Part shown: positions 3,646-51,985 of the stretch, one piece after another
How the letters are laid out: the number at the start of each line of letters is the position of its first letter
How positions within the stretch are numbered: the first letter of the stretch is position 1
Notes under the pieces: generated by a model
The model's input: only the letters and a program-made list of their open reading frames with translations
The model's database searches: none
Told to the model about the DNA's origin: nothing
Origin: Lacibacter cauensis
GTDB taxonomy: Bacteria; Bacteroidota; Bacteroidia; Chitinophagales; Chitinophagaceae
Length of the DNA: 64,000 nucleotides
Reading direction: 5' to 3'
NCBI RefSeq assembly: GCF_007830055.1
Contig: NZ_VLLE01000002.1
Span: 197,953-261,952 of the forward strand
Made by a program: the position numbers and the translations under genes

Positions 3646-3673
3646 TAACTTATAACTCTTAACCCATAACTTG
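3646..3673 (+). repeat. Heptad-periodic repeat, 4 units (TAACTTA type)
   Basis: Four consecutive 7-nt units each beginning TAAC (TAACTTA, TAACTCT, TAACCCA, TAACTTG) just beyond the 3' end of the Nudix gene. One of several 7-nt-period intergenic arrays in this window with unrelated unit sequences. Confidence 0.65.
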
Positions 3674-3674
3674 C

Positions 3675-4292
3675 TCACACCAAACGCAACACATCTTTAA
3701 TAGAAGGAAATGTATTGTTCAAATACAGTCCGATATCTTCTTTCTTTACCCATTTAATTTCCAGAATATCCTCTTCGGTTTGTGGGGTTGTGGTTTGCGC
3801 CCCTTTTACCTTCATTTTATACCAGTGCGAATCTTTGAGGATGTGCTTGCCAAATTCGTTGTAAGTATGATAGGTAATGGTAAGAAGCTCGCCCAATTCC
3901 GGTTGTTGTAACCCTGTTTCTTCCTCTACCTCCCGTACGGCACACTGCTCAATGGTTTCACCCGGGTCGAGCTTACCCTTGGGCAGATCCCATTTGCCCC
4001 GGCGGTGTATCAGCAGGTATTGGCCTTTTTCATTTTCCACCAAACCACCTGCGGCTGTAACCAATGTAAAGTGTTTAAAGAAAACTTTTTTCAGCTCATC
4101 AAGATCGCTGTGCAATAAAATGCCTGCATGAAACTCCTCCTTTGCAATTTCGTGCAGCAGCGATTTAATGGCAGGCCCCGAAATTTCATCCATTAACACA
4201 GCATCGGGGTGATGCATGTATTCTTCAATAGTAGCATCCACTTCGTTACAAAGGAAAACCGGTTTATCGCCAAAATAGATTTTGATGAACAT
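3675..4292 (-). CDS. Nudix hydrolase
   Basis: Hydrolyses a nucleoside diphosphate linked to another moiety. The complete Nudix box G-x5-E-x7-REVEEETGL runs from Gly106 to Leu128, with the metal-binding glutamates in REVEEE. The approximately 75-residue N-terminal extension before the Nudix fold is unlike the short MutT type and is seen in some Bacteroidota proteins; its role is unknown. Substrate is not predictable from sequence. It is divergent from pyrE across a spacer made mostly of heptad repeats. Confidence 0.9.
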   Translation of the reverse strand: MFIKIYFGDKPVFLCNEVDATIEEYMHHPDAVLMDEISGPAIKSLLHEIAKEEFHAGILLHSDLDELKKVFFKHFTLVTAAGGLVENEKGQYLLIHRRGKWDLPKGKLDPGETIEQCAVREVEEETGLQQPELGELLTITYHTYNEFGKHILKDSHWYKMKVKGAQTTTPQTEEDILEIKWVKKEDIGLYLNNTFPSIKDVLRLV

Positions 4293-4301
4293 GGGGGTAG
4301 A

Positions 4302-4500
4302 AGGTTTGAGGTTGTGGGTTTGAGTTGCAAGTTACAGGTTTCTGGTTGCAGGTTTCCGGTTGCTTGTGCCTTGCTCCTTGGATTTTCCTGTTTCCTGAAC
4401 CTTGTTCCTTCGGTTTTTGCTTTTTGGATATTTTCCCTTGTACCCTGTTTTTGTTCCTTGGATTTTGGTTTTTCTTGAGCCTTGTCCCTTGTTCCTTATT
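4302..4500 (+). repeat. Long heptad-periodic degenerate repeat between Nudix gene and pyrE
   Basis: The spacer starts with about nine 7-nt units of GGTTGCA/GGTTTCC type (4302-4364), then changes to units of CCTTGCT/TTTCCTG/CCTTGTT type that continue with some phase slips to the pyrE promoter. The strand bias (T and G rich on plus) creates long meaningless open frames on both strands, which I do not call genes. Confidence 0.8.
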
Positions 4501-4504
4501 TTTG
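4497..4504 (+). promoter_or_regulatory. Candidate -7 promoter box for pyrE
   Basis: TATTTTTG followed by CCGC matches the Bacteroidota -7 element TAnnTTTG and the extended form seen at other genes here. It ends 4 nt before the pyrE ATG, so the transcript would be leaderless or nearly so. No clear -33 TTTG lies at the expected distance. Confidence 0.5.
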
Positions 4505-4508
4505 CCGC

Positions 4509-5144
4509 ATGACAAATGAACAAGCTGTAGCCGAGAAACTGTTACAAGTTAAGGCCATTAAACTAAATGTAAAAGAGCCCTTTACCTGGGCCAGTGGCTG
4601 GAAAAGTCCTATTTACTGCGATAACCGCAAAGTCTTATCCTTTCCGCATGTACGTGAGTTTATCAAGAGCGAAATGTGCAATGTTATTTTCGAACAGTTT
4701 CCCAATGCAGAACTGCTGGCAGGTGTAGCTACCGCCGGTATTGCCTGGGGTGCTATGGCGGCCGATCAGTTGAAGCTGCCTTATATCTATGTGCGTCCGA
4801 AACCCAAAGAACACGGATTGGGTAACCAGATTGAAGGAGCCTACGAACCCGGACAAAAAGTAGTGGTGATTGAAGACCTTATCTCTACCGGTAAAAGCAG
4901 TCTTCAGGTGGTAGATGTGTTGAAGGCAGCAGGTGTGGAAGTAATTGGTATGGTATCCATTTTCAACTATGGGTTTGATGCCGCCAAAGATGCATTTGCT
5001 AATGCCGGGGTGAAATATCTGTCGCTTACCAATTATCCCACACTCATTCAGCTAGCAATCGATAAGCAGATTGTGGAAGCAGGCGAACAGGAAGTTTTGT
5101 TAAAATGGAGTGCCGACCCTGCCAATTGGAAGGGAATGGAGTAA
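4509..5144 (+). CDS. pyrE: Orotate phosphoribosyltransferase
   Basis: Converts orotate and PRPP to orotidine 5'-monophosphate in de novo pyrimidine synthesis. The PRPP-binding loop VVVIEDLISTGKSS and the YVRPKPKEHG segment, which carries active-site lysine and histidine, identify it. 211 residues is normal. I chose the ATG at 4509 (MTNEQAVAEKLL) rather than an in-frame start 27 nt upstream, because the family begins there and the -7 box abuts it. It is monocistronic; the next gene is 145 bases away behind a palindrome. Confidence 0.95.
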   Translation: MTNEQAVAEKLLQVKAIKLNVKEPFTWASGWKSPIYCDNRKVLSFPHVREFIKSEMCNVIFEQFPNAELLAGVATAGIAWGAMAADQLKLPYIYVRPKPKEHGLGNQIEGAYEPGQKVVVIEDLISTGKSSLQVVDVLKAAGVEVIGMVSIFNYGFDAAKDAFANAGVKYLSLTNYPTLIQLAIDKQIVEAGEQEVLLKWSADPANWKGME

Positions 5145-5214
5145 TTTCATATCGGCACTGCTACTCCTCATGAATTATAGTCCAAAAAACTGTTCTGTGT
5201 CTAATCAGGGCGTA

Positions 5215-5232
5215 ATCCCCTCCTTGGAGGGG
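5215..5232 (+). repeat. Dispersed palindromic repeat, copy 1
   Basis: ATCCCCTCCTTGGAGGGG, an almost perfect palindrome, identical over 18 nt to 39672-39689. It lies between pyrE and the metal-binding-domain gene. Confidence 0.75.
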
Positions 5233-5289
5233 GCTTGGGGGTGGGTCTCTTCAAAATCAGACAACTTAAAAACAATAACTACTCAACAC

Positions 5290-5649
5290 ATGAAAACATT
5301 CCTCAGCGTACTCTTCCTGGCGGTAACATTTACCGCCTCGGCCCAGTTTAAAAAGCCCATTGTGGCACAAATAAAAACACCACAGGCCCAATGTGCCGAG
5401 TGCAAAGAGCGCATTGAAAAGTTTATGAAAACGGAAGAAGGCGTGGTGAAAGTAGTGGTAGACATCCGTAAAAAAATAACCACCGTCACCTTTGCACCCG
5501 ACCGCACCAATATCGAAAACGTAAAAACAGCCATTGCCAACCTCGGTTTTGATGCCGATGATGTGGTGGCTGAAGCGGAACAATACAAACGCTTACCCCT
5601 TTGCTGCAAACGGGAAGCCGATGGTGGCGGACCGCCCAAAAAACAATAA
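5290..5649 (+). CDS. Secreted heavy-metal-associated (HMA) domain protein
   Basis: 119-residue exported protein: an N-terminal signal peptide (MKTFLSVLFLAVTFTASA, cleavage before QF) then one ferredoxin-like HMA domain of the kind that binds Cu(I) or other soft metals. The metal site is CAEC around residues 35-38, and a second Cys pair (LCCK) lies near the C-terminus. Typical HMA is MxCxxC; here the second Cys is at spacing C-x2-C but the Met is replaced. The ATG at 5290 is used because it starts the signal peptide; longer in-frame starts run into the palindrome. A strong terminator follows directly. Confidence 0.85.
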   Translation: MKTFLSVLFLAVTFTASAQFKKPIVAQIKTPQAQCAECKERIEKFMKTEEGVVKVVVDIRKKITTVTFAPDRTNIENVKTAIANLGFDADDVVAEAEQYKRLPLCCKREADGGGPPKKQ

Positions 5650-5666
5650 TTCAAAGCTGAAAATAG

Positions 5667-5701
5667 AAAGCCCCATCGTTTAGAGCGATGGGGCTTTTTT
5701 T
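5667..5701 (+). terminator. Intrinsic terminator
   Basis: 9-bp GC-rich stem (5670-5678 with 5686-5694), 7-nt loop and a 7-T run, placed 20 nt after the HMA gene stop. Confidence 0.92.
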
Positions 5702-5921
5702 GTGCGGTTGTAGCATGAGCGCTTTAACGTATTTTGCCGCCTCGTACTTTAACCCCCAAGGCTAACTTGTAATTAATTTCTTTTAAATGTTTGAGGAAAG
5801 AAGAATGTCCTTTTTTCTGCCTAACAGATTCCTCCTTTGTCGGAAAGACAACTTTCGGGGCAGCAGTACAAATAGGTGAGGTTGAGAACAGAAACTCAAA
5901 ATAAGAAACCTAAAACCTTCT

Positions 5922-6383
5922 CTACGGAGCCGGCTCCAAAATCCCCAACTCGTGTTTGCCCTCGTAGGCCAGCGGAATGGTTTTAAAAAGTCCGCCTACA
6001 CCTGCCCGGATGGTGCCGTTGGCCCGGATGGTTACCTGCCTGCTGGAAATGGCCGACCAGGCATTTTTGAACAAATTCTTCATATCCGTTTTAATCCGGA
6101 GGGGTATGGCAAAGTCTGCCTTTCTGGCAACCTTGATCAACGTGTCGCTGTAGGCCCTTCCCAAATACACATCATCTACATACACATCAGCCTCGGTGTG
6201 ATTGACCTGGAAACCGAGGCGGTTGGGGTTGTTGTAAACCAGTTCCATGTACACGGTTGTTTCATTTAACCCGATCGACTCCAGCCGAAGGTTTTGAAAA
6301 TCCTTGTACTCCGGAATCTTAAAAGGGTTGCAGGAACAGAAAAACAGGACCAAGAGGAGCAGGAGAGAGAAGGTTCGTAACAC
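5922..6383 (-). CDS. LEA type 2 family lipoprotein
   Basis: 153 residues. The N-terminus is a lipoprotein signal (LLLLVLFFCSC), so the mature protein is probably membrane anchored. The rest is one LEA14/WHy-type beta-sandwich: the YKDFQNLRLESI start, the NPNRLGF segment (the conserved NPN of the family), and IPLRIKTDMKNLF. Bacterial LEA2 lipoproteins have no clear biochemical role. It is alone on the minus strand. Confidence 0.83.
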   Translation of the reverse strand: MLRTFSLLLLLVLFFCSCNPFKIPEYKDFQNLRLESIGLNETTVYMELVYNNPNRLGFQVNHTEADVYVDDVYLGRAYSDTLIKVARKADFAIPLRIKTDMKNLFKNAWSAISSRQVTIRANGTIRAGVGGLFKTIPLAYEGKHELGILEPAP

Positions 6384-6678
6384 GCTTTTTGAGTTTGGCG
6401 CAAATTAACACAAGCTGTTGATATCTCTTTTAAAAGCTTTCGTGGAAGGTCTTACTTTTGAACTAAATTCATTAGCGGATTTTGGGGTAAAGAAGCTACC
6501 GGAGAAAGGCAAAGGATTGTAGTACTTAAATATAATAGTAAATGGTTGTTTTTAAATTTATTAACTATATTTTATTTATTTTTAAATAAATGCAAAATGT
6601 ACCTATAAATCGTTGAAACAGTCCTTTAAAAATGACTTTGGATAACATGGAGGTTAACAGAATTTAAATATAATATAA
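6384..6678. other. AT-rich intergenic spacer
   Basis: 295 bases without a credible gene. The second half (about 6520-6660) is strongly AT-rich with many TTTAAATA-like runs. It probably holds the promoters of the divergent LEA and WbqC genes, but I see no clear box. The AT-rich composition continues into the first 35-40 codons of the WbqC gene. Confidence 0.5.
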
Positions 6679-7275
6679 ATGATTGATTTACATTATTTTG
6701 GAGATATTTATTCGTATTTAAAATTTATACAACGAACAAATGTTGAATTTTCGCCATATCAAAACTACCAAAGAGCCTCAAAATTGAACCGAATGCGGTT
6801 AATGGGAGCTAATGGTCCACTCCTCCTCAGCGTGCCGTTAGAGGGCGGCAGAGACCAGCAGGTGGCATTGAAGGGTTTGCGGATCTCCTATGCCGAACCC
6901 TGGCAACGGATCCATTGGCGGGGTATCCACGACAATTACCGGAAGGCTCCCTGGTTTGAGGACTATGCCCCCGGGCTGGAAAGCCTGTACCGGAAGCGGG
7001 AGAAATTTCTGCTGGACCTGAACCTAAAAACCACTGAATGGGCAGTACAACGACTAAAACTAAAAGTTGACTTTTTGGCAGTAGAAAGGGAGCAGGACCT
7101 CCTGAAGCAGGTGCAGGTTGCAAAAGACTCCGGGCAGCCGAAGACCGGTAGCTGGCCAGTGTACCAGCAGGTTTTTGGTGAACGGCATGGGTTTGTACCC
7201 AATCTGAGTATTGTTGATTTGTTGCTTTGTGAAGGGCCGATGGCCATTAACTATTTAAAAAAAATTGCACTGTAA
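6679..7275 (+). CDS. WbqC-like family protein
   Basis: 198 residues, usual length for the WbqC family, which often lies near polysaccharide or envelope genes and has no proven reaction. Family marks visible: FSPYQNYQRASKLNRMRL, GANGPLLLSVPLEGGR, and WQRIHWRGIHDNYRKAPWFEDY. The first 110 bases are AT-rich, while from about 6790 the gene is distinctly GC-rich, an abrupt shift within one gene. Downstream lie 134 bases without a feature, then the large T9SS cargo. Confidence 0.85.
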   Translation: MIDLHYFGDIYSYLKFIQRTNVEFSPYQNYQRASKLNRMRLMGANGPLLLSVPLEGGRDQQVALKGLRISYAEPWQRIHWRGIHDNYRKAPWFEDYAPGLESLYRKREKFLLDLNLKTTEWAVQRLKLKVDFLAVEREQDLLKQVQVAKDSGQPKTGSWPVYQQVFGERHGFVPNLSIVDLLLCEGPMAINYLKKIAL

Positions 7276-7409
7276 TAAAAGTTTGCAGCCGATTAAACGT
7301 CAAACGCTTTCTTTAGTCTAACATCCTTACATGAAGAATTGCTGACCTGATTGAAGTTACCCACCATTTAATCATTAACTTGTAACCCGCTCTTCAGGCT
7401 GCTTAAAAA

Positions 7410-10400
7410 ATGAGAAAATTCTTCAGTCTATTTGTAACTGTACTCTTTGTTACCCAACTTTTGCGTGCACAGGATTTTTCGAACCGGGGAAAAGATTTCT
7501 GGATCGCTTACCCATCGCATATTGATGGTACCAACTCGGTGATGGGGTTGTATATCACATCCGATCAAAATGCCTCGGGCACCATCAAAGTAGGGGGTAC
7601 TACTATCGCTTTTACCGTTACTGCCAATACCATTACCCGTAAGTTTTTAGGTCCCGGTGCAGGTGGCGATGCACCCAATACCGGAGTTCATTTAACTGCC
7701 CAGGACGGCATTGAAGTGGGTAAGGGTATACGTGTTACTTCCGATAAGCCTGTGGTTGTATATGCACATATTATCCGTTCGGCACGTTCAGGGGCTACCT
7801 TGGCCTTGCCTGTTTCGGTATTAAGTAAGGAATACATTATACCCAGTTACCGGAATGTGGGCAGCGGTGGTGCCAATGCAGGGTACGGAGAGCTTGCAGT
7901 TGTGGCAACCGATACGAATACCATTGTAGAAATAACACCCTCCGTAACAAGCCGCTCCGGCACAAGGGCGGCGGGTGTGCCATACACCATAACGCTGGCC
8001 AACCCCGGCGATGTGTACCAGGTGCAGTTTCAGCAAAATGCCGATATATCGGGCACCATTGTACGCTCCATAGCAGCCAACGGTATAAAATGTAAAAAGA
8101 TTGCAGTGTTTTCGGCCACCACCTGGTCGGCCTTTGATTGTACGACACCGGTTGCATCAGGTGGCGATAACCTGTTTCAGCAACCATTTCCCACCACATC
8201 GTGGGGCAAGAGCTTTTTAACAGCGCCGTTTTTCAATAATCCATCTAACAGAGATATCATTCGTGTATTTGTAAAAGATCCGGCCACTGTTGTGCAGAAA
8301 ACAGAATTGGGTGTTACCACCACACTTACAGGCTTAATTGCGGGTTCTTATTACGAGTATTCAACTGGTAATCCAACCGCCATTACCGCCGATAAGCCGG
8401 CATCGGTGGTGATGTATATCCGTTCGCAAACCTGCCAAACACCAGCCGCCAATACCGATCCGGAAATGGTGATCATCAACCCGGTTGAGCAGACCATAAA
8501 TGATATTACCGTGTTTTCGGCGCACCAAAACTTTGTACCTACGGGTCAAAGCCAGGTAACCAATCACTATCTCAATATTATTATTAAAACAGCTGCAGCT
8601 GCTTCGTTTCGTATCAGCGGAGTGGCACCTACGGGTACCTTCATCCCTATACCGGGTACGCAGTATTCATACCTGCGGGAAGATGTTTCGGCCAAGTCGG
8701 CCAGTAATCCTGTACACAGCTTAAAGGCCGATTCAGCTTTTATTGCCATTGCCTATGGTTTTGGTAATGTGGAATCGTACGGGTACAATGCGGGAACGAA
8801 TGTGAAAGATCTCTTTCAGTTTATTGATACGAAGAACTCATTGGGTACAGCACCTTTCCCGGCAGCCTGTATCAATTCACCCTTTAATTTCTCAATTACA
8901 TTTCCCTATCAGCCCGATTCGATCCGTTGGGATTTCGGAACGTTGTTTCCTGCCGTATCGTATAGTTCGCCTGTAGCCGATACCAGCTACCTTATCAGCG
9001 GACGTATGGTGTACCGATTCCGCATACCGCAAACCTATTCGATACCTACGGCGGGTACCTATACGGTAAAAGTATATGCCCGTAACCCCTTGGGTGATGG
9101 GTGCAGCAGTGACCAGGAAATTGAATTTGATCTGCAGGTGTTCAATCCTCCAACAACTGACTTTAGTTTTACGAGCTCAGGCTGTACCGATTCGGCTGTG
9201 GTGTTTACACCCAGCACCAACTCGGGAGGAAGACCCATCATTAAACATTACTGGGATTTTGGCGACGGTACTACGGGCAGCACGGCCAATCCATCCAAAA
9301 TCTATCTCAGCCCCGGTACATTTACAGTAAAGTATGTAGCATTGACGGATATTGGTTGTATCAGCGATACGGTTACCAAAACCATTACGCTTACCAAAGT
9401 ACCGGTAGCGAAATTCGGTATCCTGGATTCGTTGTGTATCGGCAAAGTATTAACCTTCCGTGATTCTTCATCGTTAGCAGGTGGCTTTGGCAGTATAACC
9501 AACTGGAACTGGAGTACGGGAGTCGGAGGTCCGATCAATAATACATCCTCTGCCGATGTAACAACTACTTATGGTGCTACCGGTAATTACACAGCCAGTC
9601 TGCAACTGCGTACCAACACCGGTTGTACCAGTCCGGTTTATCAAAAAGCAGTAACCATCCGGCCTAAACCAACAGTTGATTTTACCTTATCGCATGGCTG
9701 TTTGCCGAACCCTGTTATCAACTTTACAAATACCTCTACTATTGCTGATGGTACACAGGCTGGTTTTGCGTATGCCTGGAACTTTGGTGACCCTGCAAGT
9801 GGTGCACTCAATAGCGCAACTGTTCAAAATCCGTCGCATGCATATCCTTCGGCCGGTCCGTTTACTGTGCAGTTGAAAATAACTTCGCAGTACGGTTGTA
9901 TTGATTCGGTAACGAAAGCAGCCGATAAAATTTATCCGCAACCGAAGGCTGATTTTACTGCGCCTGCAGAAGTGTGCTGGCAAACGCCCATTACATTTAC
10001 CGATGCATCGAATGGCTTCACGCATCCGGTTACAAAATGGGAGTGGCGCTTCAGCGATGGAACTACCTCTACCCAAAAAAATCCGGTAAAGAACTTTACC
10101 AATCCCGGTACTTATACAGCAACGCTCTGGGTGTTTACCGATCAGAATTGTGTAAGTGATACGATTGCAAAAACAGTTGTGGTGAACCCATGGCCAACAG
10201 CCAGCTTTACCACAAGCACCATTCTGTGCGAAAAGAATGTGTTGAACTTCACCAATACTTCAGTTGCCAATGCTGGTAATATAGCACGTGCCTATTGGGA
10301 TTTTGGCGATGGTAATACTGCCAATATCAATATACTCACCAGCACACATACTTATACCAACTGGGGAAATTATACGGTTCGTTTTGTAACAGAAACAGAC

Positions 10401-18798: not shown

Positions 18799-18853
18799 GG
18801 GGAATGAGGCTAAAAATGAGACGGTTGCGGAGCAGTGGGGAAAACGGGATTTA

Positions 18854-18937
18854 GTCGTGAGTGGTGAGTGAAGAGTTAAGGGTTATGTGTTGCCGGTTGC
18901 AGGTTGCCGGTTGCTGGTTATGGGGTATGGGTGGAGC
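18854..18937 (+). repeat. Heptad-periodic repeat, 12 units (GTnnnnG type)
   Basis: Twelve consecutive 7-nt units, with no slip, each beginning GT or GG: for example GTCGTGA, GTGGTGA, then GTTGCCG, GTTGCAG, GTTGCCG, GTTGCTG. Units diverge gradually along the array. No coding capacity. Confidence 0.8.
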
Positions 18938-26041: not shown

Positions 26042-26071
26042 GCGTAAAGATAAGCAACGATGACGATAGAA

Positions 26072-26113
26072 GTCAGTCGTAAATCGTCAGTAGTGAGTCG
26101 TGAATCGTTAAAG
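26072..26113 (+). repeat. Heptad-periodic repeat, 6 units (GTCAGTC type)
   Basis: Six exact 7-nt units beginning GT (such as GTCAGTC, GTAAATC, GTGAGTC, GTGAATC). The last overlaps the 3' end of the OstA-like gene. Confidence 0.75.
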
Positions 26114-38834: not shown

Positions 38835-38890
38835 GTACGGGGAGAGAGGTAAGAAGTACGATGTATGCGGTACGAAGTACGAAGTGTGCG
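38835..38890 (+). repeat. Heptad-periodic repeat, 8 units (GTACGAA type)
   Basis: Eight exact 7-nt units beginning G (GTACGGG, GAGAGAG, GTAAGAA, GTACGAT, GTATGCG, GTACGAA twice, GTGTGCG). It starts 8 nt upstream of the ABC-F -7 box, where the -33 box would lie. Confidence 0.8.
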
Positions 38891-39572: not shown

Positions 39573-39596
39573 GATGATTGATGAGTGGGGAGCTGG

Positions 39597-39634
39597 TAGC
39601 TATTAGCCATTAGCCGATAGTTGGTAGTTGATAG
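39597..39634 (+). repeat. Heptad-periodic repeat, about 5 units (TAGCTAT type)
   Basis: Consecutive 7-nt units TAGCTAT, TAGCCAT, TAGCCGA, TAGTTGG, TAGTTGA, then TAGTC. Located 25 nt after the DUF3347 stop. Confidence 0.72.
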
Positions 39635-39671
39635 TCTTTCGATCATTCACTTTTAAAATATCACACTGTCT

Positions 39672-39689
39672 ATCCCCTCCTTGGAGGGG
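39672..39689 (+). repeat. Dispersed palindromic repeat, copy 2
   Basis: ATCCCCTCCTTGGAGGGG, identical over 18 nt to 5215-5232. Confidence 0.75.
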
Positions 39690-39795
39690 CGGCATGTTGT
39701 TACACATGAGAATGATTGATGGGTTGGGTTGTTTCATTTAAACAAAAACACCGTTTGCTTGTAATAGAGGGGACTTTAAAACAGGACATAGCCGC

Positions 39796-42340: not shown

Positions 42341-42346
42341 CCGTTT

Positions 42347-44087: not shown

Positions 44088-45332
44088 ATGCAAACAACCC
44101 GACGCTCTGTTTCTACAAAAGAAGTAATTGTGTTTACTTCCTGTTCCATGATACTCACTGCACTGGGTATTGATATTATGTTGCCGGCGTTGGGAGCGAT
44201 CCGTCAGCATTTTGGTTTACCCGATAACAGTCCGGCCACTGCTAACCTGATCTCTTATTTTTTTATGGGACAGATTACGCAAATCTTCTTTGGTTATTTA
44301 ACCGATAGGTATGGCCGCCTGCCTGTTTTACGCATTGGTTTTGTTATTTATATTTTTTGCGGTATTGCAACGGTATTTGCACCTGCTCTCAGCATGATGC
44401 TGGTGCTGCGGTTTTTCAGCGGCATGGGAGCAGCAGCAGTACTTATGACGGCCATTGCTTCTGTGCGAGATCAGTATGCCGGAAGTGAAATGGCCAGGGT
44501 GATGTCGTTTGTATTAACCATTATGTTGCTTACACCGGTCATAGCACCTGCGTTGGGATCGTTTGTATTGCAGCACTCATCGTGGCAGGTGGTATTTCTT
44601 ATACCGCCGTTGTTTGCTATTCCGGTTTTTATATGGTCATTCCGGTTAACAGAAACACTTCCTGCAGAGGCACGGTTGCAAACAAGCTTTCTTAAAAGCA
44701 TGCCGCAGTTATGGTATGTACTTACCAACCGACTGTTTATGCGTTACTGCATTACAGCCACCATCATCTTTTCTATTCTTACTGCTTATGTTTCCAGTTC
44801 GGAACGGATCATTGGAGAGTTGTATCTGCAACCTGCGCTGTTTCCCTGGATATTCGGAACAATCGGTGCAGTGATGGCCGTGTTTGCGTTAAGCAATTCT
44901 TATTTTACCAAACGCTTTGGTGCGAAAAGAGTGTTGCGCTTTTTTCTTACGGCCTACATGCTGGTATCGCTGTTGTTTGTTGCATTGCATTTCATTATCG
45001 ATAATCCTCTTCCGCTCTGGTATTTTGTTGTGTGTATTGGTTTGTTGATGTCGTTTACTGTAGCCGCCGATCCCAACGGCAGTGCATTAGCCCTTGAGCC
45101 AATGGGGAGCAAAGCAGGTATTGCCGCTTCGGTGTATGGAACCTTGTTTTTCTTTATCGGTTCGTTGATTGGCACAATCATCAATCACTTTATGATTGCG
45201 AGTGTATTGCCATTAGCAATTGCAGCGCTGATTGTGAGTGTTGTTGGGATGATATTGGTGTTTAGTGAACCTAAAAATTTTTTACCAAAAACGATACGCA
45301 TGCATCAAAGCAGAGTAATTGGATTCGGCTAA
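44088..45332 (+). CDS. MFS drug-efflux transporter (Bcr/CflA type)
   Basis: 414 residues, 12 helices. MFS motif A is GYLTDRYGRLPVLRIG after helix 2, and helix 5 has the antiporter motif TPVIAPALGS. Bcr/CflA members export drugs or dipeptides in exchange for protons. The last 18 residues (NFLPKTIRMHQSRVIGFG) differ from a duplicated 3' fragment at 46565-46667, where the frame ends directly after VFSEPK; the fragment may show the older 3' end. Confidence 0.9.
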   Translation: MQTTRRSVSTKEVIVFTSCSMILTALGIDIMLPALGAIRQHFGLPDNSPATANLISYFFMGQITQIFFGYLTDRYGRLPVLRIGFVIYIFCGIATVFAPALSMMLVLRFFSGMGAAAVLMTAIASVRDQYAGSEMARVMSFVLTIMLLTPVIAPALGSFVLQHSSWQVVFLIPPLFAIPVFIWSFRLTETLPAEARLQTSFLKSMPQLWYVLTNRLFMRYCITATIIFSILTAYVSSSERIIGELYLQPALFPWIFGTIGAVMAVFALSNSYFTKRFGAKRVLRFFLTAYMLVSLLFVALHFIIDNPLPLWYFVVCIGLLMSFTVAADPNGSALALEPMGSKAGIAASVYGTLFFFIGSLIGTIINHFMIASVLPLAIAALIVSVVGMILVFSEPKNFLPKTIRMHQSRVIGFG

Positions 45333-45364
45333 TCAGGTTGAGTCCAAGTTATTTCACCTATATA

Positions 45365-45553
45365 TCACCGGTCAATAGTAAATATAAACTGGCCATTGAG
45401 CTCATAATTTGTGCCATCAGGTTTTACAAATTCAACTTCATAGCTATCGTCGCTCCAAATTTCAAGTACAACACCTGCCATTCCTTTGACTATTGCTAGA
45501 TTGACATCTTTCCCAAGTGTGAAAGTATCATATTGTTTTATCTTATACTTCAT
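45365..45553 (-). CDS. DUF4926 domain small protein
   Basis: 62 residues: IKQYDTFTLGKDVN..KGMAGVVLEIW..SYEVEFVKPDGT, an SH3-like fold with the GxxGVVxEI pattern of DUF4926. Family members often lie in immunity, toxin or DNA-transfer contexts; function unknown. It starts the accessory stretch behind the MFS gene. Confidence 0.8.
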   Translation of the reverse strand: MKYKIKQYDTFTLGKDVNLAIVKGMAGVVLEIWSDDSYEVEFVKPDGTNYELNGQFIFTIDR

Positions 45554-45583
45554 CTTCTTGTGCTTTAGGTGACGACGGAAAAT

Positions 45584-45907
45584 TCAGCTATTAATATCTT
45601 TCAAGGGTGGGGGCTCATTAAGTTCTACTTCCCAGTGTTCATATGGAGGCACAACCACAAATGACGGATCGCAATAAGATCGCAAGTAATCTGTAGCTCT
45701 TTTTTCAGCATATTTAGCATTCAATACATTGCCATTTTCATCAATCTCTATCACATTAGCATAAATGGCAAACACCTGCTCAATTGCACTCGGTTCTTCT
45801 CCATACAGTGGTAAGTAATCTATGCCTTCAAGCGTGTATTGAGTTCCACTTGCCATAAAGTATGCAAATGTTCTTAAAGCGCCACTGAACGAGTTACTTA
45901 GTTTCAT
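45584..45907 (-). CDS. Small conserved hypothetical protein, 107 aa (DUF7677-like)
   Basis: No signal or membrane segment. The blocks GALRTFAYFMASGTQYT, DYLPLYGEEPSAIEQVFAIYANVIEIDE and KYAEKRATDYLRSYCDPSFVV recall a small protein family I believe is DUF7677; I am not certain of the number. Acidic, helical, compact, as are many toxin-immunity proteins. It lies next to a REP palindrome and is on the same strand as DUF4926. Confidence 0.72.
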   Translation of the reverse strand: MKLSNSFSGALRTFAYFMASGTQYTLEGIDYLPLYGEEPSAIEQVFAIYANVIEIDENGNVLNAKYAEKRATDYLRSYCDPSFVVVPPYEHWEVELNEPPPLKDINS

Positions 45908-45926
45908 TTTGATTGACTTTTTTTAT

Positions 45927-45948
45927 CGGTTGGTGTCTCCACCAACCG
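45927..45948 (+). repeat. REP palindrome 1
   Basis: CGGTTGGTG, TCTC loop, CACCAACCG. 9-bp stem, preceded by TTTAT and followed by AAAC. 20 nt upstream of the DUF7677-like start. Confidence 0.85.
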
Positions 45949-45963
45949 AAACAAACATACCAG

Positions 45964-46509
45964 TTATTCATCATAATGCGTCAGTATACCAAACTCATTC
46001 TTTCCTGTTAGATAGAAATCGGCGCTGCTCCATCGATAACGTTCAGGCAAATCTGCAAGATTCCATTTTTCTTGAATTGGATTATTATGAATGTAGTCAA
46101 GCTTTTGCAGCAATGCTTTTTTCGAACTGATTACAATAGCTAATGGATCCCGTTTCCAAAACTGGAAAGCTCGATCTGTTTTCTTTGAATGATAGTTCTG
46201 CAAAGATTCCGGATCTTTGATAGTAAGTAATTGCTTAAACCGGTGGGCTGTAAACTTGGCAAAGCTACCGGCAGGGCTTTCTTTTCCGTTAAGATCGTTC
46301 ATCATCCACAACAGGTGAATATGATTTGGCATGATGACATACCCGTAAATAGTTATGAGTTTTCGTTCGGTTAAATATTTCCATGAATCAATGCAGATTT
46401 GTTTACATTCATCATCAGCCAATAATGGTTTAAAATCCTGGATTGTATCTGTATAGAAATAACAGAGTGCGGTTTCCATTTGGCCTTGTCTGGCATGTTG
46501 TAGGTGCAT
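45964..46509 (-). CDS. REP-associated tyrosine transposase (RAYT)
   Basis: 181-residue Y1 transposase of the IS200/IS605-related RAYT family; cuts single-stranded REP hairpins. The HUH motif is HIH (63-65) in YGYVIMPNHIHLLW; the catalytic Tyr is Y139 in LDYIHNNP, followed by YRWSSADFY as in other RAYTs. Length fits and no frameshift is seen, so it may be active. Flanked by matching inverted REPs. Confidence 0.92.
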   Translation of the reverse strand: MHLQHARQGQMETALCYFYTDTIQDFKPLLADDECKQICIDSWKYLTERKLITIYGYVIMPNHIHLLWMMNDLNGKESPAGSFAKFTAHRFKQLLTIKDPESLQNYHSKKTDRAFQFWKRDPLAIVISSKKALLQKLDYIHNNPIQEKWNLADLPERYRWSSADFYLTGKNEFGILTHYDE

Positions 46510-46535
46510 GAATTAAATTTACAACATTCTGGTTT

Positions 46536-46557
46536 CGGTTGGTGGAGACACCAACCG
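46536..46557 (+). repeat. REP palindrome 2 (inverted copy)
   Basis: CGGTTGGTG, GAGA loop, CACCAACCG: reverse complement of palindrome 1 including the flanking GTTT and GATAA. The MFS gene fragment starts 8 nt after it. Confidence 0.85.
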
Positions 46558-46564
46558 ATAAGAA

Positions 46565-46667
46565 AATCATCAATCACTTTATGATAGCGAATGTGTTGCC
46601 ATTAGCAATTGCAGCGCTTCTTGTGAGTGTTGTTGGGATGATATTGGTGTTTAGCGAGCCAAAATAA
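46565..46667 (+). pseudogene. Duplicated 3' fragment of the MFS transporter gene
   Basis: About 103 bases match the 3' part of the MFS gene (45176-45277) with roughly 8 substitutions, in the same orientation. In frame it reads IINHFMIANVLPLAIAA and so on, ending VFSEPK and TAA. It begins exactly at the REP palindrome boundary. There is no start codon or promoter. Confidence 0.85.
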
Positions 46668-46686
46668 AACTGATAAGTTGTTTTAA

Positions 46687-46753
46687 TTGTTGGTGTTTTC
46701 AACAACTAAAAATTTATGCCTTTATTTCGGTTGGTGAAACGCCAACGGATAAA
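46687..46753 (+). repeat. Degenerate REP-like palindromes
   Basis: TTGTTG-N7-CAACAA (46687-46705) and TTTCGGTTGGTG...CAACGGATAAA (46725-46751), the latter sharing the outer parts of REPs 1 and 2 but with an altered loop. Remnants of the same family. Confidence 0.6.
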
Positions 46754-46767
46754 AAATAGGCTGTTGA

Positions 46768-47283
46768 TTATTGTTGTGTAAATTTTGATGCAGTTAATTG
46801 CAATAGTTCCATCTTAGTGTTAAGCTTAATTTTTTCAATTTTTAAATCTAATATTTCAGACGGCGTATTTTGCTCAACTTTTATTTTTGAAAGAAAAGTT
46901 GATAATACTGATTCTACGTTATTTTCAGTTGTGAACTTGATACCATTAGCTGTGTTAAAAACAACGTGATTAATAATGGTATAAATAAAGAGCCTGTCCC
47001 AAATATCATTTCTATTGAAAGAAAGATTGCTTAGAATGCCTTCAAAGTCCATCTCTCTTTTACCATGAATACAGTTCATGGTTTTTATCAAAAGAGATTT
47101 TGTTCTTCTTTTCACTAGCTGAAATTGTAGTTTGTCAAATAGATTTCCACCTGACAGTAGGCTGATTTTACCTTCATTGCTCCATAAATTGACATAACAA
47201 AAATTCATTAAAAAACTTCCTGATGGGTTTATTCTTATCATGATTGAAAAGTTTATAGTGCTTTTGTTCACCCGGGGTTTCAT
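46768..47283 (-). CDS. Hypothetical protein, 171 aa, accessory region
   Basis: Unrecognised. Low-GC gene encoding a soluble protein with a Lys-rich C-terminal helix (EILDLKIEKIKLNTKMELLQL). ATG at 47283 is used; the ATG at 47241 is an alternative. No motif seen. It lies between a REP remnant and a hairpin next to the HEPN gene. Confidence 0.55.
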   Translation of the reverse strand: MKPRVNKSTINFSIMIRINPSGSFLMNFCYVNLWSNEGKISLLSGGNLFDKLQFQLVKRRTKSLLIKTMNCIHGKREMDFEGILSNLSFNRNDIWDRLFIYTIINHVVFNTANGIKFTTENNVESVLSTFLSKIKVEQNTPSEILDLKIEKIKLNTKMELLQLTASKFTQQ

Positions 47284-47302
47284 CGAGTGGGCACTTTTTG
47301 TA

Positions 47303-47328
47303 GGCGAGTCTTCTGCAAAGGACTCGCC
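47303..47328. repeat. Hairpin GGCGAGTC/GACTCGCC
   Basis: 8-bp perfect stem with a 10-nt loop, between the HEPN gene and the 171-residue gene. No T run next to it on either strand within 5 nt, so terminator status is doubtful. Confidence 0.55.
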
Positions 47329-47409
47329 AGAATTACTTTTTCGTTTCCATTATACGACGAGTCTGTTTCACCATGTACGCTTGTAAACCGGTTGGCAAAA
47401 AAATATTAA

Positions 47410-48015
47410 CTAAGTGCTGTACTTTCTCAAAAATAAATTTACTCCTTGCAGCATCAGGGAAATTTTGCTTTTGTCACAAACTAAATCCCATTCTCCGTGA
47501 GCTGCATGGTTTCTAAGACCAGCCCATGATGTGATGTCTTTAAAGTCTTGCTTAGTTATTAATTCTGCTTCTTTAAGAATTTTGGTATATGTATCAATAC
47601 CAGGTTTTAAGTTCCCTAAATCTAAATTTTTATCTTCCACCCAATTTCTCAGAAATTCTTCAAGTGAGGCTCCTATTAAAACACAAGCAGCTGCAGAATG
47701 AACACCTTTTGTGTCTAACAATTGATTGGCTTGTTCTAAAATATCAGAGACTACATCCATTTGAGCTTTACGCTCAATAGAAATGCCATCTGTAAGTCCA
47801 TTCTCTAAAAATGTAATAAAACCTTTTAAAATCATTTTAGCAAGAGCCGCATTATGCTCATGCGAGTTTTTGAAATTGTTTACCTGTTTGTAAAACGAAC
47901 TTTTTTCACCTGCATAGATTCGCAAAAATTCAAGAATGCTTACATAGGTAGAGGGTGCAGGTTGGTTGCTATTTGCTAAATTCTTTGCTGCATTTATTAG
48001 AAATGGTTTATCCAT
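47410..48015 (-). CDS. HEPN-motif protein
   Basis: 201 residues, all-helical. The R-x4-H motif is R168-NHAA-H173 in LRNHAAHGEWD, the catalytic mark of HEPN RNases and of the DUF4145/AbiU-like group; SAAACVLIGASLEEFLRNWVED is the usual partner helix. Many HEPN proteins in such islands are toxins or phage-defence effectors, but some are inactive. No minimal-nucleotidyltransferase partner adjoins. It sits at the edge of the accessory island against nrdA. Confidence 0.72.
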   Translation of the reverse strand: MDKPFLINAAKNLANSNQPAPSTYVSILEFLRIYAGEKSSFYKQVNNFKNSHEHNAALAKMILKGFITFLENGLTDGISIERKAQMDVVSDILEQANQLLDTKGVHSAAACVLIGASLEEFLRNWVEDKNLDLGNLKPGIDTYTKILKEAELITKQDFKDITSWAGLRNHAAHGEWDLVCDKSKISLMLQGVNLFLRKYST

Positions 48016-48110
48016 AAAATTGATTAATTATTGCTTATCTACTAAATTATACGACAATTAATGTAAAACCAAATTTCTCAATCGTTGTTATCACTCCATA
48101 AACAAAAACA

Positions 48111-48141
48111 AAAATCCCCTTGCTTCATCAACAAGGGGATT
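48111..48141 (-). terminator. Intrinsic terminator of nrdA
   Basis: 10-bp perfect stem (48113-48122 with 48132-48141), 9-nt loop, followed on minus by a T run. 20 nt after the nrdA stop. Confidence 0.87.
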
Positions 48142-48161
48142 GCAAATTTATACAACAACAA

Positions 48162-50558
48162 TTACGAACCGCAACTGATACAACCATCCTGCATGCTGCA
48201 GGTAGGGCCATCAACCTGTGTAGGTTCAATGTCGGTGGTTGTTTGTGCGTTGTTTGTTTTTTCAGTTGAAGGAATCACCGGGCTGATATCTGCACTTGCC
48301 TGTTTCTCTACTGTAAACTGCACCGCTTGCGTTGCCGCTTGTGTACGCAGGTAATACATACCTGTCTTCAAACCTTTTTTCCATGCGTGGAAATGCATCG
48401 AAGTCAATTTAGAAGCAGTCGGATTATCAACAAAAAGATTCAACGATTGCGATTGACAGATGTACGCTCCACGATCGGCAGCCATATCAATGATATTGCG
48501 TTGCTTGATTTCCCAAACTGTTTTGTACAGTTCTTTAATATCAGCCGGTATTTCATCAATATTCTGGATAGAACCGTTTGCTGCAATGATCTTGTTCTTC
48601 ATCGTATTGTTCCACAAGCCGAGGCTTACCAGGTCTTTCAGCAAATGCTTGTTCACAATAATAAACTCACCACTTAATACACGGCGTGTATAAATGTTGG
48701 AGGTGTATGGTTCGAAACATTCGTTGTTGCCAAAGATCTGCGAAGTAGAAGCAGTAGGCATTGGTGCAACCAGTAAAGAGTTTCGTACGCCATATTGTTT
48801 TACTTCTTCTTTCAGTGTAGCCCAATCCCAACGGTCGGTTGGTGTAACACCCCACATGTCGAACTGGAAAATTCCTTTCGATACCGGTGAACCTGCAAAG
48901 GTTTCGTAAGGCCCTTGTTCTTTCGCAAGGTCTTTACTTGCTGTCATTGAAGCAAAGTAGATGGTCTCGAAAATATTTTTGTTCAGCATTTTGGCGAGGT
49001 CGCTTTCAAACGGCAAACGCAGTAAGATGAACACATCAGCCAAACCCTGTACACCTAAACCAATCGGGCGGTGACGCATGTTGCTGTTCTTTGCTTCTTC
49101 AACAGGGTAGTAGTTGTTATCAATAATCTTGTTGAGGTTCTTGGTTGTTTCGTACGTTACCTCGTATAATTTTTCATGATCAAACTTTCCATCAATCACA
49201 AAACGGGGGAGAGCCAACGATGCAAGGTTACATACCGCCACTTCATCAGGACTGGTATATTCCATGATCTCTGTACACAGGTTCGAACTCTTGATGGTAC
49301 CGAGGTTCTGTTGATTTGATTTGCTGTTGGCCGCATCTTTATACAGCATGTACGGCGTACCTGTTTCAATCTGCGATTGCAGAATAGCAAACCAAAGATC
49401 CTGTGCCTTGATGGTTTTTCTTGCTCTTCCTTCGGCTTCGTATTGTGTGTACAGCTTTTCAAACTCTTCGCCCCAGCATTCGCTTAAGCCGGGAGCTTCG
49501 TTGGGACAGAACAAACTCCATTCGCCGTTTGCTTCCACACGCTTCATAAACAGATCACAAATCCACAATGCATAGAACAGATCTCTTGCACGCATTTCTT
49601 CTTTACCATGGTTCTTGCGCAGATCGAGGAACTCAAACACATCGGCATGCCATGGCTCGAGGTAAATAGCAAAAGCGCCTTTGCGTTTACCACCGCCCTG
49701 GTCTACATAACGGGCCGTATCGTTAAACACACGCAGCATGGGGATGATACCGTTGCTGGTACCGTTGGTGCCACCAATATAACTACCCGTTGCTCGGATG
49801 TTGTGAATAGCCAAACCTATACCACCTGCACTCTGCGAAATTTTCGCCGTTTGTTTCAGCGTATCATAAATACCATCAATGCTGTCTTCCTTCATGGTTA
49901 AAAGAAAACAGGAACTCATCTGTGGTTTCGGCGTACCTGCGTTGAAGAGTGTAGGTGTTGCATGCGTCATCCAGCGTTCACTCATCAGGTGATACGTTTT
50001 GATGACGCTGTCGATATCGTTTTTATGAATGCCTACAGCTACACGCATGTACATGTGCTGCGGACGTTCTGCAATTTTTCCGTCGATTTTTAAGAGGTAT
50101 GATTTTTCCAGTGTTTTAAAACCGAAATAATCAAATGCAAAATCACGATCGTAAATAATGGTGCTGTCTAACAACTCTGCATGCTCTTCAATAATCTGCA
50201 TCACATCATCTGCAATCAACGGTAATTTTTTACCGGTTGCTTTATCAACATAGTTGTAAAGATTCCGCATGGTTTGCGAAAAACTCTTGATGGTATTCTT
50301 ATGCAGGTTGCTCACGGCAATACGTGATGCAAGAATAGCATAATCCGGATGAGTGATGGTTAATGAAGCAGCTGTTTCTGCTGCCAGGTTATCGAGGTCG
50401 GTTGTAGCCACACCTTCGTAAATACCTTCAATCGTTTTTTTGGCAACATCAATAACGTTCACCATGGGGCTGAGACTGTAACTCAACTTCTCAATCCTTG
50501 CGGTAACCTTATCGAATTTTACCGATTCTTTTTTGCCGTTCCGTTTTACTACAAACAT
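48162..50558 (-). CDS. nrdA: Ribonucleoside-diphosphate reductase alpha subunit
   Basis: Catalytic subunit of class Ia RNR. 798 residues: N-terminal ATP-cone (about 1-90: [21 protein letters not shown]), the barrel with active-site NLCTE (Asn-Cys-Glu), substrate Cys pair in SSCFLLTM and VAVCNLASL, the Tyr-containing [20 protein letters not shown], and the swinging-tail Cys pair CISC four residues from the end. The sequence is of the eukaryote-like subgroup, as is its partner. Second gene of the nrdB-nrdA operon with a 96-base spacer. Confidence 0.97.
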
Positions 50559-50582
50559 AATGGGGTGTAAGTTTTATAATGA

Positions 50583-50654
50583 ATGATGTCTGATTTCTGA
50601 TGTATGATGTCTGATGGTTTTAAATCCGACATCAGCCATCATACATCCTACATC
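50583..50654. repeat. Heptad repeat folding as a hairpin between nrdB and nrdA
   Basis: Five 7-nt units of ATGATGT/CTGATTT type (50583-50617), an 8-nt spacer, then four units of CCGACAT/CATACAT type (50626-50653), which are reverse complement in character. GATGTATGATG(T/G)CTGATG pairs across with one mismatch. The whole would form a long hairpin in the nrdBA mRNA. Confidence 0.8.
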
Positions 50655-51626
50655 TTAAAAGTCCTCGTCTGTTGAAAACACCTGCGTATCCTTTCCGCCC
50701 ATCACACCTGCTTTCTGGTAATCGCCTACACGCTTCTCAAAGAAGTTGGTTTTACCCTGCAGTGAAATCATTTCCATAAAGTCGAATGGATTGGTTGCGT
50801 TGTACACTTTTGAATAACCAAGCTCTGTTAACCAACGATCGGCTACAAACTCAATGTATTGCTGCATCAGTTTCGCATTCATACCAATCAATGCCACCGG
50901 CAACGCTTCGGTGATGAATTCTTTTTCGATGGTTACAGCATCGGTAATAATGGTGCGCACCTGTTCTTCACTCAGTTTGTTTTGCAGCATGCTGTAGAGT
51001 AAGCAGGCAAATTCGCAATGCAAACCTTCATCACGGCTGATGAGCTCGTTGCTGAAGGTGAGGCCCGGCATCAGTCCACGTTTCTTCAACCAGAAAATAG
51101 AGCAGAAACTACCGCTGAAGAAAATACCTTCTACTGCAGCAAATGCAACCAGGCGTTCCGCAAAATTTCCGTTCTCGATCCAACGCAACGCCCATTCTGC
51201 TTTTTTCTTTACAGCAGGTACCGTGTCGATAGCGTGGAAGAGTTTATGTTTTTCCTGCGGATCTTTAATATAGGTATCGATCAGCAAGGCGTATGTTTCG
51301 CTGTGAATGTTTTCCATCATAATCTGGAAACCATAAAAACATCTTGCTTCGGGCAACTGCACTTCGCTCATGAAATTAACAGCGAGGTTCTCGTTTACGA
51401 TACCATCACTTGCTGCAAAAAAAGCGAGTACATGCGAAATGAAATGACGTTCGCCTTCGTTGAGGTTTTCCCAATCTTTCAGATCACCACTCAAATCAAT
51501 TTCTTCAGCCGTCCAGAAACTGGCTTCGTGCTGCTTATAATGCTTCCATATTTCAGGATAGTTAATCGGCAGAATAACAAAACGGTCTTTGTTTTCCTTT
51601 AACAGGATTTCTTCTTCGTGCTGCAT
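50655..51626 (-). CDS. nrdB: Ribonucleoside-diphosphate reductase beta subunit
   Basis: Diiron-tyrosyl radical subunit. 323 residues. Iron ligands E105-x-x-H108 in ENIHSETY and the later E-G-L-H of RDEGLHCEF; the radical tyrosine is Y112, four residues after H108 as in mammalian R2. [13 protein letters not shown] and [26 protein letters not shown] are nearly as in animal R2, so it belongs to the eukaryote-like NrdB group. The C-terminal peptide ends FSTDEDF, for docking to NrdA. Start chosen at 51626. Transcribed from behind a cobalamin riboswitch. Confidence 0.97.
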
Positions 51627-51754
51627 AATTGCTTCTTTACATTTTAAATTCGGAAGACGAGTATAGTGCTGACAGGACAGGCCACAACAGAAGTGGCGAA
51701 TACGATCAGTCAATTACTTTTCTACCCGAAAGCTTTGTGACTTTAACTTGTTCA

Positions 51755-51985
51755 TCCTCCGGCAGGTCTTCTGACTTGTTCGCTGTTGAACACCTTCCCA
51801 TCCAACCAAGTGGTAAGACAGTGGCTTGTAGATTCAACAGGTGAGTGGTGAGTTGTGAATAGTGAGTGGGATTCCGATCAGAGAATCATTCACTATTGAC
51901 CATTGACCATTCACATTAAGAACTCACAGCTACGGGGATAGCTCAGGATTTACACCTGATTCCCTTTTAATGCAATGTGCTGGAA
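51755..51985 (-). promoter_or_regulatory. Cobalamin riboswitch upstream of nrdBA
   Basis: Read on the minus strand the conserved parts come in order: GGGAATCAGGTG, AAATCCTGAGC, CCCCGTAGCTGTGAG, then after a variable arm GCCACTG (51825-51819), GGGAAGG (51799-51793), and CAGAAGACCTGCC (51773-51761). TTCAACAG (51833-51840) pairs with CTGTTGAA (51783-51790). This is the classic AdoCbl-type aptamer. Vitamin B12 should shut off nrdBA. Expression platform lies in the approximately 130 bases to the ATG; a GCCAC...GTGGC hairpin (51681-51697) is a candidate part. Confidence 0.92.
51841..51926. repeat. Heptad repeat forming the variable riboswitch arm
   Basis: Four 7-nt units GTGAGTG, GTGAGTT, GTGAATA, GTGAGTG (51841-51868), then an inverted set GAATCAT, TCACTAT, TGACCAT twice, TCACATT (51883-51917). 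The two halves pair over AATAGTGA-TG-ATTC. Exact period 7 as elsewhere. Confidence 0.8.

What the first reader, a model, noticed from the sequence alone, without database searches (positions are those of the whole stretch)
3646..51926. A family of intergenic repeats with exact 7-nt period but unrelated unit sequences
At least eight loci (3646, 4302, 18854, 26072, 38835, 39597, 50583, 51841) carry 4-12 consecutive heptamers. Period 7 is exact within arrays, usually a G (or TA) opens each unit, yet units drift within an array and are unrelated between arrays. All are intergenic. This is not simple slippage of one unit: sequence drifts while length is held, as if length or phase were selected or as if the arrays grow by copying the previous unit with errors. 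Cyanobacteria have heptanucleotide STRRs, but those have fixed units. Origin and role here are unknown.
Basis: partly seen in the sequence, partly recalled or inferred. Interest (0 to 1): 0.78.

Follow-up and report, generated by a model that had tools for sequence, protein, structure and literature searches.

The report
Seven-base repeats flank a mystery gene
The odd seven-base repeats scattered through this bacterium are the same kind of sequence that sits, as a mirrored pair, on both sides of a widespread small gene of unknown function, which suggests a common hairpin element with its own binding protein rather than random stutter of DNA copying.

Summary
Period 7 dominates intergenic DNA here: 22 arrays (score >=12) against 0.1 in shuffles; no other period from 4 to 13 exceeds 3. 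But the arrays are not unrelated and not all intergenic. They share a register, a G (usually AG) every 7 nt with other positions loose; one pair lies inside a cobalamin riboswitch, others in frame inside urocanase and a dehydrogenase linker. Key finding: PF05635 genes (23S-rRNA intervening-sequence / four-helix-bundle protein, IVP) sit between inverted heptad arrays. Both flanks pass in 10 of 12 copies in this genome, 43 of 68 in relatives, 13 of 30 across the phylum and 19 of 23 plasmid records, mostly cyanobacterial; control periods give few or none. Genomes of the phylum with IVP carry AGT-heptads more often (58/65 against 14/52). Slots persist between species while words turn over. Best reading: IVP elements and IVP-less hairpins related to them. 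Inferred, untested: the IVP pentamer reads about five heptads per arm through AG, as TRAP reads its repeats. Ten paper searches found no report linking the two.

The parts
3646..3671 (-). short heptad array (reads GTTATGG GTTAAGA GTTATAA on the - strand), convergent spacer; no array in the three relatives compared (0 of 3)
4296..4448 (+). composite array: GT-rich heptads (GGTTTGA, GGTTGCA) followed by heptads of the opposite type (CCTTGTG, CCTTGCT), continued at 4458-4500; arrays in the same slot in 3 of 3 relatives
18851..18931 (+). heptad array, G in the fixed register in 12 of 12 units; slot occupied in 2 of 2 relatives compared
26062..26111 (+). heptad array AGTCGTA/AGTAGTG/AGTCGTG, antisense to both neighbouring genes; weak array in 1 of 2 relatives compared
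38839..38885 (+). heptad array GTACGAA type, G in register 7 of 7; slot occupied in 2 of 3 relatives
39573..39635 (+). heptad array AGCTATT/AGTTGGT type, G in register 8 of 9; slot occupied in 3 of 3 relatives, two of them with a GTGAGTG-type hairpin
50576..50616 (+). arm of a heptad hairpin between the ribonucleotide reductase small- and large-chain genes (TGATGTC type). The same slot holds GTGAGTG-type hairpins in G001 and G003 and a hairpin with an IVP gene in its loop in G007
50622..50659 (-). inverted arm of the same hairpin (overlaps the stop codon of the small-chain gene)
51840..51869 (+). arm of a heptad hairpin (GTGAGTG type) inside the cobalamin riboswitch upstream of the small-chain gene
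51888..51914 (-). inverted arm of the same hairpin (GTGAATG/GTCAATG type)
51744..52018 (-). cobalamin riboswitch (RF00174, 70.2 bits, gathering score 31.5) that hosts the hairpin; the corresponding leader of G007 has no heptads

Best explanation
The arrays are arms of a family of hairpin elements whose complete form carries a PF05635 gene (IVP, four-helix-bundle protein) in the loop: arm of about five AG-heptads, IVP gene, inverted arm. The window holds IVP-less forms: two hairpins (50576-50659, 51840-51914), one composite with both orientations (4296-4500), and single arms. Shown by the data: IVP genes lie between inverted period-7 (sometimes 8) arrays in several phyla; the conserved feature is a G/AG every 7 nt rather than a sequence; slots persist between species while words turn over, and IVP presence in a slot varies. 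Inferred: IVP binds the arms. PF05635 crystals hold five chains (2GSC, 2RLD) and 2GSC is described as a homopentameric ring; arms measure about 35 nt, so each protomer could take one heptad through the AG and leave the rest unread, as TRAP (recalled) takes (G/U)AG triplets at fixed spacing. That would hold spacing and register while sequence drifts; local slippage then supplies new units. I put the element/IVP association at about 0.85 and the pentamer-reading mechanism at about 0.3. How elements spread or are replaced is not shown.
For: Both-flank period-7 arrays (score >=9) at IVP genes: 10/12 own, 43/68 relatives, 13/30 phylum; at periods 5, 6 and 9-13 none on both flanks, at period 8 1, 5 and 3 (110 of 111 loci delineated). 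All 23 plasmid records found by IVP similarity: 19 period 7 on both flanks, 2 period 8 on both, 2 on one flank only (20 are distinct, since L352/L404 and L353/L354/L405 are 97-100% identical; one of the 19, L408, also passes at periods 6 and 8). Seven more, chosen for nearby arrays, all period 7. Phyla: Cyanobacteria, Alphaproteobacteria, window's phylum, and MAGs labelled Terriglobia and Chitinispirillaceae. Ordinary genes in the same genome: 11 of 350 have arrays on both sides, two of them IVPs. Up arm against reverse complement of down arm: median score 37 within an element, 18 across elements. Polarity: up arms G>C 68 of 78, down arms C>G 70 of 81. Register: EM score 35.2 against 27.6 +/- 0.2 in 20 column-permuted sets; the model from IVP arms fits 39 non-IVP arrays of this genome better than 200 of 200 permutations (7.65 against 5.64 +/- 0.58, max 6.99). 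Genome level: AGT-heptad runs in 58/65 IVP-positive (E<=1e-25) and 14/52 other genomes of the phylum (p 3e-12). Three family genomes without IVP: 1 array (>=14) in 400 kb; fifteen with IVP pooled: 70 in 1,324 kb. Slots: 16 of 19 relative spacers have an array where this genome has one >=12, 0 of 39 where it has none. IVP presence varies in a slot: nrd spacer, spacer between ALAD and aminotransferase genes. IVP under purifying selection: in 36 pairs with matching flanks and >=70% aa identity, third positions 0.58 identical, arms 0.64. Arm length median 34 nt, IQR 31-41, n=160. 2GSC and 2RLD, five chains each; homopentamer per PMC4990558, introduction.
Against: Only 14 of 43 arrays in the sample have an inverted partner within 300 bp by sequence, so most are single arms or have arms with different words. 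Only 36 of 110 IVP elements have arms more alike than the 99th percentile of cross-element pairs. Four genomes without PF05635 at E<=0.001 (G127, G143, G149, G159) still have AGT-heptads, G149 with 158 overlapping matches; 7 IVP-positive genomes have none. In 4 of the 15 IVP-positive relatives the 20-40 kb looked at held no array, and IVP number and array density correlate weakly (rho 0.43, p 0.08). Arm words follow IVP similarity only weakly (Mantel r 0.13, above 500 of 500 permutations; below 50% identity 0.06, inside the permuted range), so there is no direct sign that an IVP type reads particular words. Period-8 arms exist. Sense-RNA pairing is not favoured (42 G.U-type against 46 A.C-type differences). 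The array at 26062 is antisense to both neighbours. The genome-level test is not corrected for shared ancestry. No binding, expression or mobility was tested.
Confidence: 0.68

Rival explanations
1. Plain slippage: heptamers arise because the replicating polymerase slips by 7 nt, then decay by point mutation; IVP genes merely land near them.
For: Similarity decays with unit distance; 14- and 21-nt repeats appear inside arrays; this explanation is in print for bacterial heptamers (PMC4692102, passages, citing a 2007 study that I did not see). Four genomes without a PF05635 match have AGT-heptads.
Against: It predicts no shared register, no inverted partner, no fixed polarity and no tie to one gene family; all four are seen. 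Three family genomes without IVP have almost none (1 in 400 kb).
Confidence: 0.12
2. Reverse order: heptad hairpins exist for another reason (another mobile element or nucleoid protein) and IVP genes insert preferentially into their loops.
For: IVP-less arrays far outnumber IVP genes (43 arrays in 464 kb; 12 IVP matches in 4.95 Mb); the same slot can be empty, hairpin-only or IVP-bearing; 113 of 120 array loci from other genomes hold no IVP in the stretch seen.
Against: IVP loci were mostly found with arms, also on plasmids (21 of 23 with period 7 or 8 on both flanks); genomes without IVP less often have AGT-heptads.
Confidence: 0.15
3. RNA hairpins kept for transcript stability, termination or riboswitch shape; sequence free as long as arms pair.
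For: 18 of 43 arrays with flanks fold better than shuffles at z <= -2 on at least one strand (to -7.7; mononucleotide shuffles); hairpins sit in an operon spacer and a riboswitch.
Against: 25 of 43 show no such excess and 29 of 43 no partner by sequence; arm differences are not biased to G.U pairs in the sense RNA (42 against 46); arms of the dehydrogenase-linker hairpin differ in word; this would not demand period 7.
Confidence: 0.05

Closest known systems
23S rRNA intervening sequences (IVS) with an S23p/IVP gene
   Same: Same protein family in the loop of a stem made by complementary flanks, sporadic presence (PMC4990558, abstract and introduction)
   Different: Here the elements lie between protein genes, in a riboswitch and in coding sequence; arms are periodic heptads; IVP-less copies are common
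REPIN / RAYT systems
   Same: Many dispersed hairpins of inverted doublets in extragenic space and a cognate protein gene near copies of the repeat (PMC3116915, abstract)
   Different: RAYT is a transposase and REPs keep a sequence; IVP has no known catalytic motif (recalled) and the arms keep spacing and register, not sequence
Heptanucleotide repeats of cyanobacteria, Xanthomonas, Beggiatoaceae (TAACTGA, GGGAATC, GGGGA(C/T)T)
   Same: Period 7, mostly intergenic; convergent pairs in Xanthomonas and 83% of repeats in the same gene context between two species (PMC4692102 passages); indels in 7-nt steps and mixed heptamers in Bacteroidetes and Microcystis (PMC4679880 section 10). TAACTGA read on the other strand is AGTTATC, which fits the AGTTnWW register
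   Different: Those reports follow mainly one fixed word each; I saw no PF05635 partner named in the parts I read (PMC4679880 suggests S1, Csp or Csr proteins)
TRAP binding sites (recalled)
   Same: Ring protein reading short motifs at fixed spacing with loose spacers
   Different: Analogy only; 11 subunits and triplets in TRAP, five chains and AG every 7 nt here; binding untested
Avd of diversity-generating retroelements
   Same: PF05635 resembles Avd (PMC10053308 passages)
   Different: No reverse transcriptase was sought near these elements; my profile search of the PDB did not list Avd

Membership tests
23S rRNA intervening sequence | PF05635 open frame in the loop of a stem formed by its flanks | tested here: met
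   met for IVP-bearing relatives of the arrays; the window copies lack the gene (no PF05635 hit falls within C1:197953-261952)
23S rRNA intervening sequence | located in a 23S rRNA helix | tested here: not met
   window arrays lie beside protein genes and in a riboswitch
23S rRNA intervening sequence | excised by RNase III | not testable with these tools
   needs RNA work
REPIN/RAYT | cognate RAYT tyrosine transposase | not tested
   no RAYT search was run
REPIN/RAYT | repeat with conserved sequence | tested here: not met
   words differ between arrays and between species in one slot
Heptanucleotide repeats of bacteria | tandem units of exactly 7 nt, mainly intergenic | tested here: met
Heptanucleotide repeats of bacteria | one fixed unit word per family | tested here: not met
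TRAP-like recognition | oligomeric ring protein | tested here: inconclusive
   five chains in 2GSC and 2RLD; ring described for 2GSC in PMC4990558; not shown for the proteins of this genome
TRAP-like recognition | short motif at fixed spacing bound by the ring | not testable with these tools
   motif and spacing are there; binding is not testable

The most novel reading that the evidence does not exclude
A bacterium-wide class of elements whose ends are defined by spacing and register, not sequence: five AG-heptads read by a pentameric ring protein (IVP). It would account for the excess of heptanucleotide repeats in bacterial genomes, give the four-helix-bundle family a function, and make the 23S rRNA IVS one case of it. 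IVP would then be a maintenance or mobility factor that keeps arms in step while slippage renews their words.
Probability: 0.3. Interest if true: 0.92.

Novelty: new variant of a known kind. Interest (0 to 1): 0.8.

Why it matters
Two old puzzles would meet: why 7-mers exceed other long simple repeats in bacteria (put down to polymerase slippage in a study cited by PMC4692102), and what the common four-helix-bundle/IVP proteins do. The link is directly testable with one purified protein and one 35-nt oligonucleotide. It also warns that heptad hairpins can sit in frame inside enzymes and inside riboswitches.

Tried and rejected
G-quadruplex reading: GG does not recur in the TGATGTC and GTGAATG types; set aside by eye. 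Terminator or promoter reading: arrays occur in convergent, divergent and tandem spacers; no terminator or promoter scan was run. RNA hairpin as the selected feature: folding z-scores mixed, strand test null. Word specificity of IVP: Mantel test weak. Copy-number correlation among relatives: weak. Higher conservation of arms than of silent sites: not clear, 0.64 against 0.58 with different measures; the near-identical arms of G000 and G010 in one spacer are one case. Target-site duplication: flanks too diverged to tell. Xanthomonas XCC0516 flanks: not reached with the collections open to me.

Literature: ten searches listed no paper that by title, abstract start or term counts links PF05635 with heptamer arrays; aimed at that link. 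Subscription journals are mostly not held, so this is weak evidence of absence.

After a looser search of 30 of the 52 genomes without a strong IVP, 10 of 14 with AGT-heptads and 3 of 16 without had a PF05635 match at E<=0.001, some partial or below the curated cut-off; 22 were not re-searched. The EM null used fewer restarts (6) than the observed set (20). In one search, chance is about 5% per side.
Full report
What is there. The window lies in a genome held as G000 (4.95 Mb, 10 contigs). No call names it; from gene content I take it to be Bacteroidota. All eight loci carry 7-nt arrays. In 464 kb of the genome (window + 20 stretches) the intergenic lag-7 excess is z 8.7 with harmonics at 14 and 21, and coding sequence has none in bulk. 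Period-7 arrays of score >=12 number 22 in 42.5 kb of intergenic DNA against 0.1 in shuffles; no other period from 4 to 13 exceeds 3. Scanning all positions, 43 arrays pass. Among 18 genomes sampled, period 7 leads where there are arrays to speak of; the three without IVP have mostly periods 6 and 9.

Not only intergenic. The pair at 51840-51914 lies inside an RF00174 cobalamin riboswitch; the same leader in G007 has no heptads. In other stretches, arrays lie inside urocanase and between the E1 and transketolase-like domains of a fusion protein. In nine congeneric genomes, own included, the second urocanase site holds arrays of score >=8 in 6 (own, G012, G011, G013, G007, G003), an imperfect one by eye in G001, and none in G010 and G002, in open frame and with words that mostly differ; the dehydrogenase linker holds heptads in 6 and a different C-rich hairpin in 3; the first urocanase site holds heptads in 2, a C-rich hairpin in 1 and nothing in 6.

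Slots stay, words change. Against three congeners with conserved gene order, 16 of 19 spacers have an array (>=8) where this genome has one >=12, and 0 of 39 where it has none; the one slot with a weak own array, 3646, has none in 3 (spacers of 30 nt or more). Yet the nrd spacer holds TGATGTC words here (and by eye in G004, where no array passes the cut), GTGAGTG words in G001 and G003, and in G007 an arm, a gene, and an inverted arm. That gene is a PF05635 protein (E 5.6e-17).

The gene family. This genome has 12 PF05635 matches, 11 above the curated cut-off. Period-7 arrays stand on both sides in 10 of 12 (sequences). In 68 IVP loci of relatives 43, and in 30 loci across the phylum 13, pass on both sides; periods 5, 6 and 9-13 never do, period 8 does in 1, 5 and 3. 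The printed alignments show arm-like matches in many of the rest, but I count only those that pass. Arms within an element resemble each other as inverted copies (median 37 against 18 across elements; 36 of 110 above the 99th cross percentile). The control, ordinary genes of this genome, gives 11 of 350, of which two are IVPs and three more are neighbours in the same haem-gene cluster.

Other phyla. A tblastn of plasmids with one IVP found 23 records, 17 of them Nostocales genera. All 23 were fetched: 19 have period-7 arrays on both flanks, 2 (L362 Picosynechococcus, L364 Gemmatirosa) period-8 arrays on both, and 2 (L407, and L410 with a split gene) on one flank only. Some records are near copies, 20 are distinct. 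In L406 the up array has the C-rich polarity. Seven IVPs found in 120 loci with GTGARTN arrays all have period-7 arms, but those loci were chosen for such arrays.

The shared register. EM over 144 IVP arms gives A .68, G .88, T .56, T .50, any, W, W; score 35.2 against 27.6 +/- 0.2 when columns are permuted within each arm. The same model fits the 39 non-IVP arrays of this genome, which it was not trained on, better than 200 of 200 permutations. Up arms are G-rich in 68 of 78, down arms C-rich in 70 of 81. The published TAACTGA repeat, read on the other strand, is AGTTATC and fits.

Genome level. With five AGT at 7-nt spacing as probe, 58 of 65 IVP-positive genomes (E<=1e-25) and 14 of 52 others have a match (p 3e-12; period 8: 31 of 65 and 4 of 52; own genome left out). 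A looser look at 30 of the 52 found PF05635 matches, some partial, in 10 of the 14 exceptions and in 3 of 16 others. G127, G143, G149 and G159 remain exceptions. Shared ancestry is not removed.

Mechanism. Shown: association, inverted layout, register, slot persistence, word turnover, purifying selection on IVP (third positions 0.58 on average, positions 1 and 2 from 0.78 to 0.99, in 36 non-independent pairs above 70% identity). Inferred: the IVP ring reads the arms. PDB entries 2GSC and 2RLD, the only strong matches, hold five chains each; 2GSC is described as a homopentamer of four-helix bundles (PMC4990558, introduction). Arms have a median of 34 nt, about five units; the detection cut sets a floor to that length. 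Whether the target is RNA, ssDNA or DNA is open: the sense strand shows no pairing bias, single arms are common (29 of 43 without a partner), and the 26062 array is antisense.

What is known. Heptamer excess in bacteria, fixed-word heptamer families, convergent pairs in Xanthomonas and mixed heptamers in Bacteroidetes and Microcystis are in print (PMC4692102 passages; PMC4679880 abstract and sections 8, 10). IVP genes inside 23S rRNA stems are in print (PMC4990558, abstract and introduction). REPINs give the pattern of many hairpins plus a cognate gene (PMC3116915, abstract). PF05635 and Avd are likened in PMC10053308 (passages). The join between heptads and IVP I did not find in ten searches.

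Noticed in passing
L338-L341, L343 (dehydrogenase linker, urocanase site 1); window 39660-39690: A second, C-rich hairpin type (CCCCC...GGGGG) occupies coding slots in G010, G011 and G012 (linker) and G012 (urocanase site 1) that heptad hairpins occupy in congeners; a CCCCTCC/GGAGGGG stretch lies in the window slot 39573-39795.
   Followed up: no
L250, L252, L254, L255 (spacer between ALAD and aminotransferase genes): By eye, hairpins with roughly 8-nt units (CACGAAGG/CTTTGTGCC) sit where G000 and G010 carry an IVP element; G003, G007 and G013 have nothing there; G004 could not be aligned. Period-8 arms also flank some IVP genes (L362, L364).
   Followed up: partly
L355; L191:18561-18923: An IVP gene lies between the two ribonucleotide reductase genes both in G007 and on a Nostoc edaphicum plasmid.
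   Followed up: no
L358, L359, L362: IVP genes with repeat arms lie between cas6 and cas4 (Anabaena sp. 90, Pseudanabaena galeata) and between cas10/cmr2 and a cmr3-type gene (Picosynechococcus) on plasmids.
   Followed up: no
L018:14618-18870: Several spacers of a haem-biosynthesis gene cluster (ALAD, aminotransferase, coproporphyrinogen oxidase, URO-D) carry heptad arrays, and two IVP genes lie there.
   Followed up: partly
G001 slot matching window 39573-39795: A small open frame that looks glyoxalase-like by eye follows a single heptad arm where G003 and G007 have only a hairpin.
   Followed up: no
L047-L166: GTGARTN arrays occur in records titled Chloroflexi, Armatimonadetes, Acidobacteria, Mesorhizobium, Methylotuvimicrobium, Chamaesiphon, Petroclostridium and others, mostly without an IVP gene in the stretch held, up to 8 kb (113 of 120).
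   Followed up: partly
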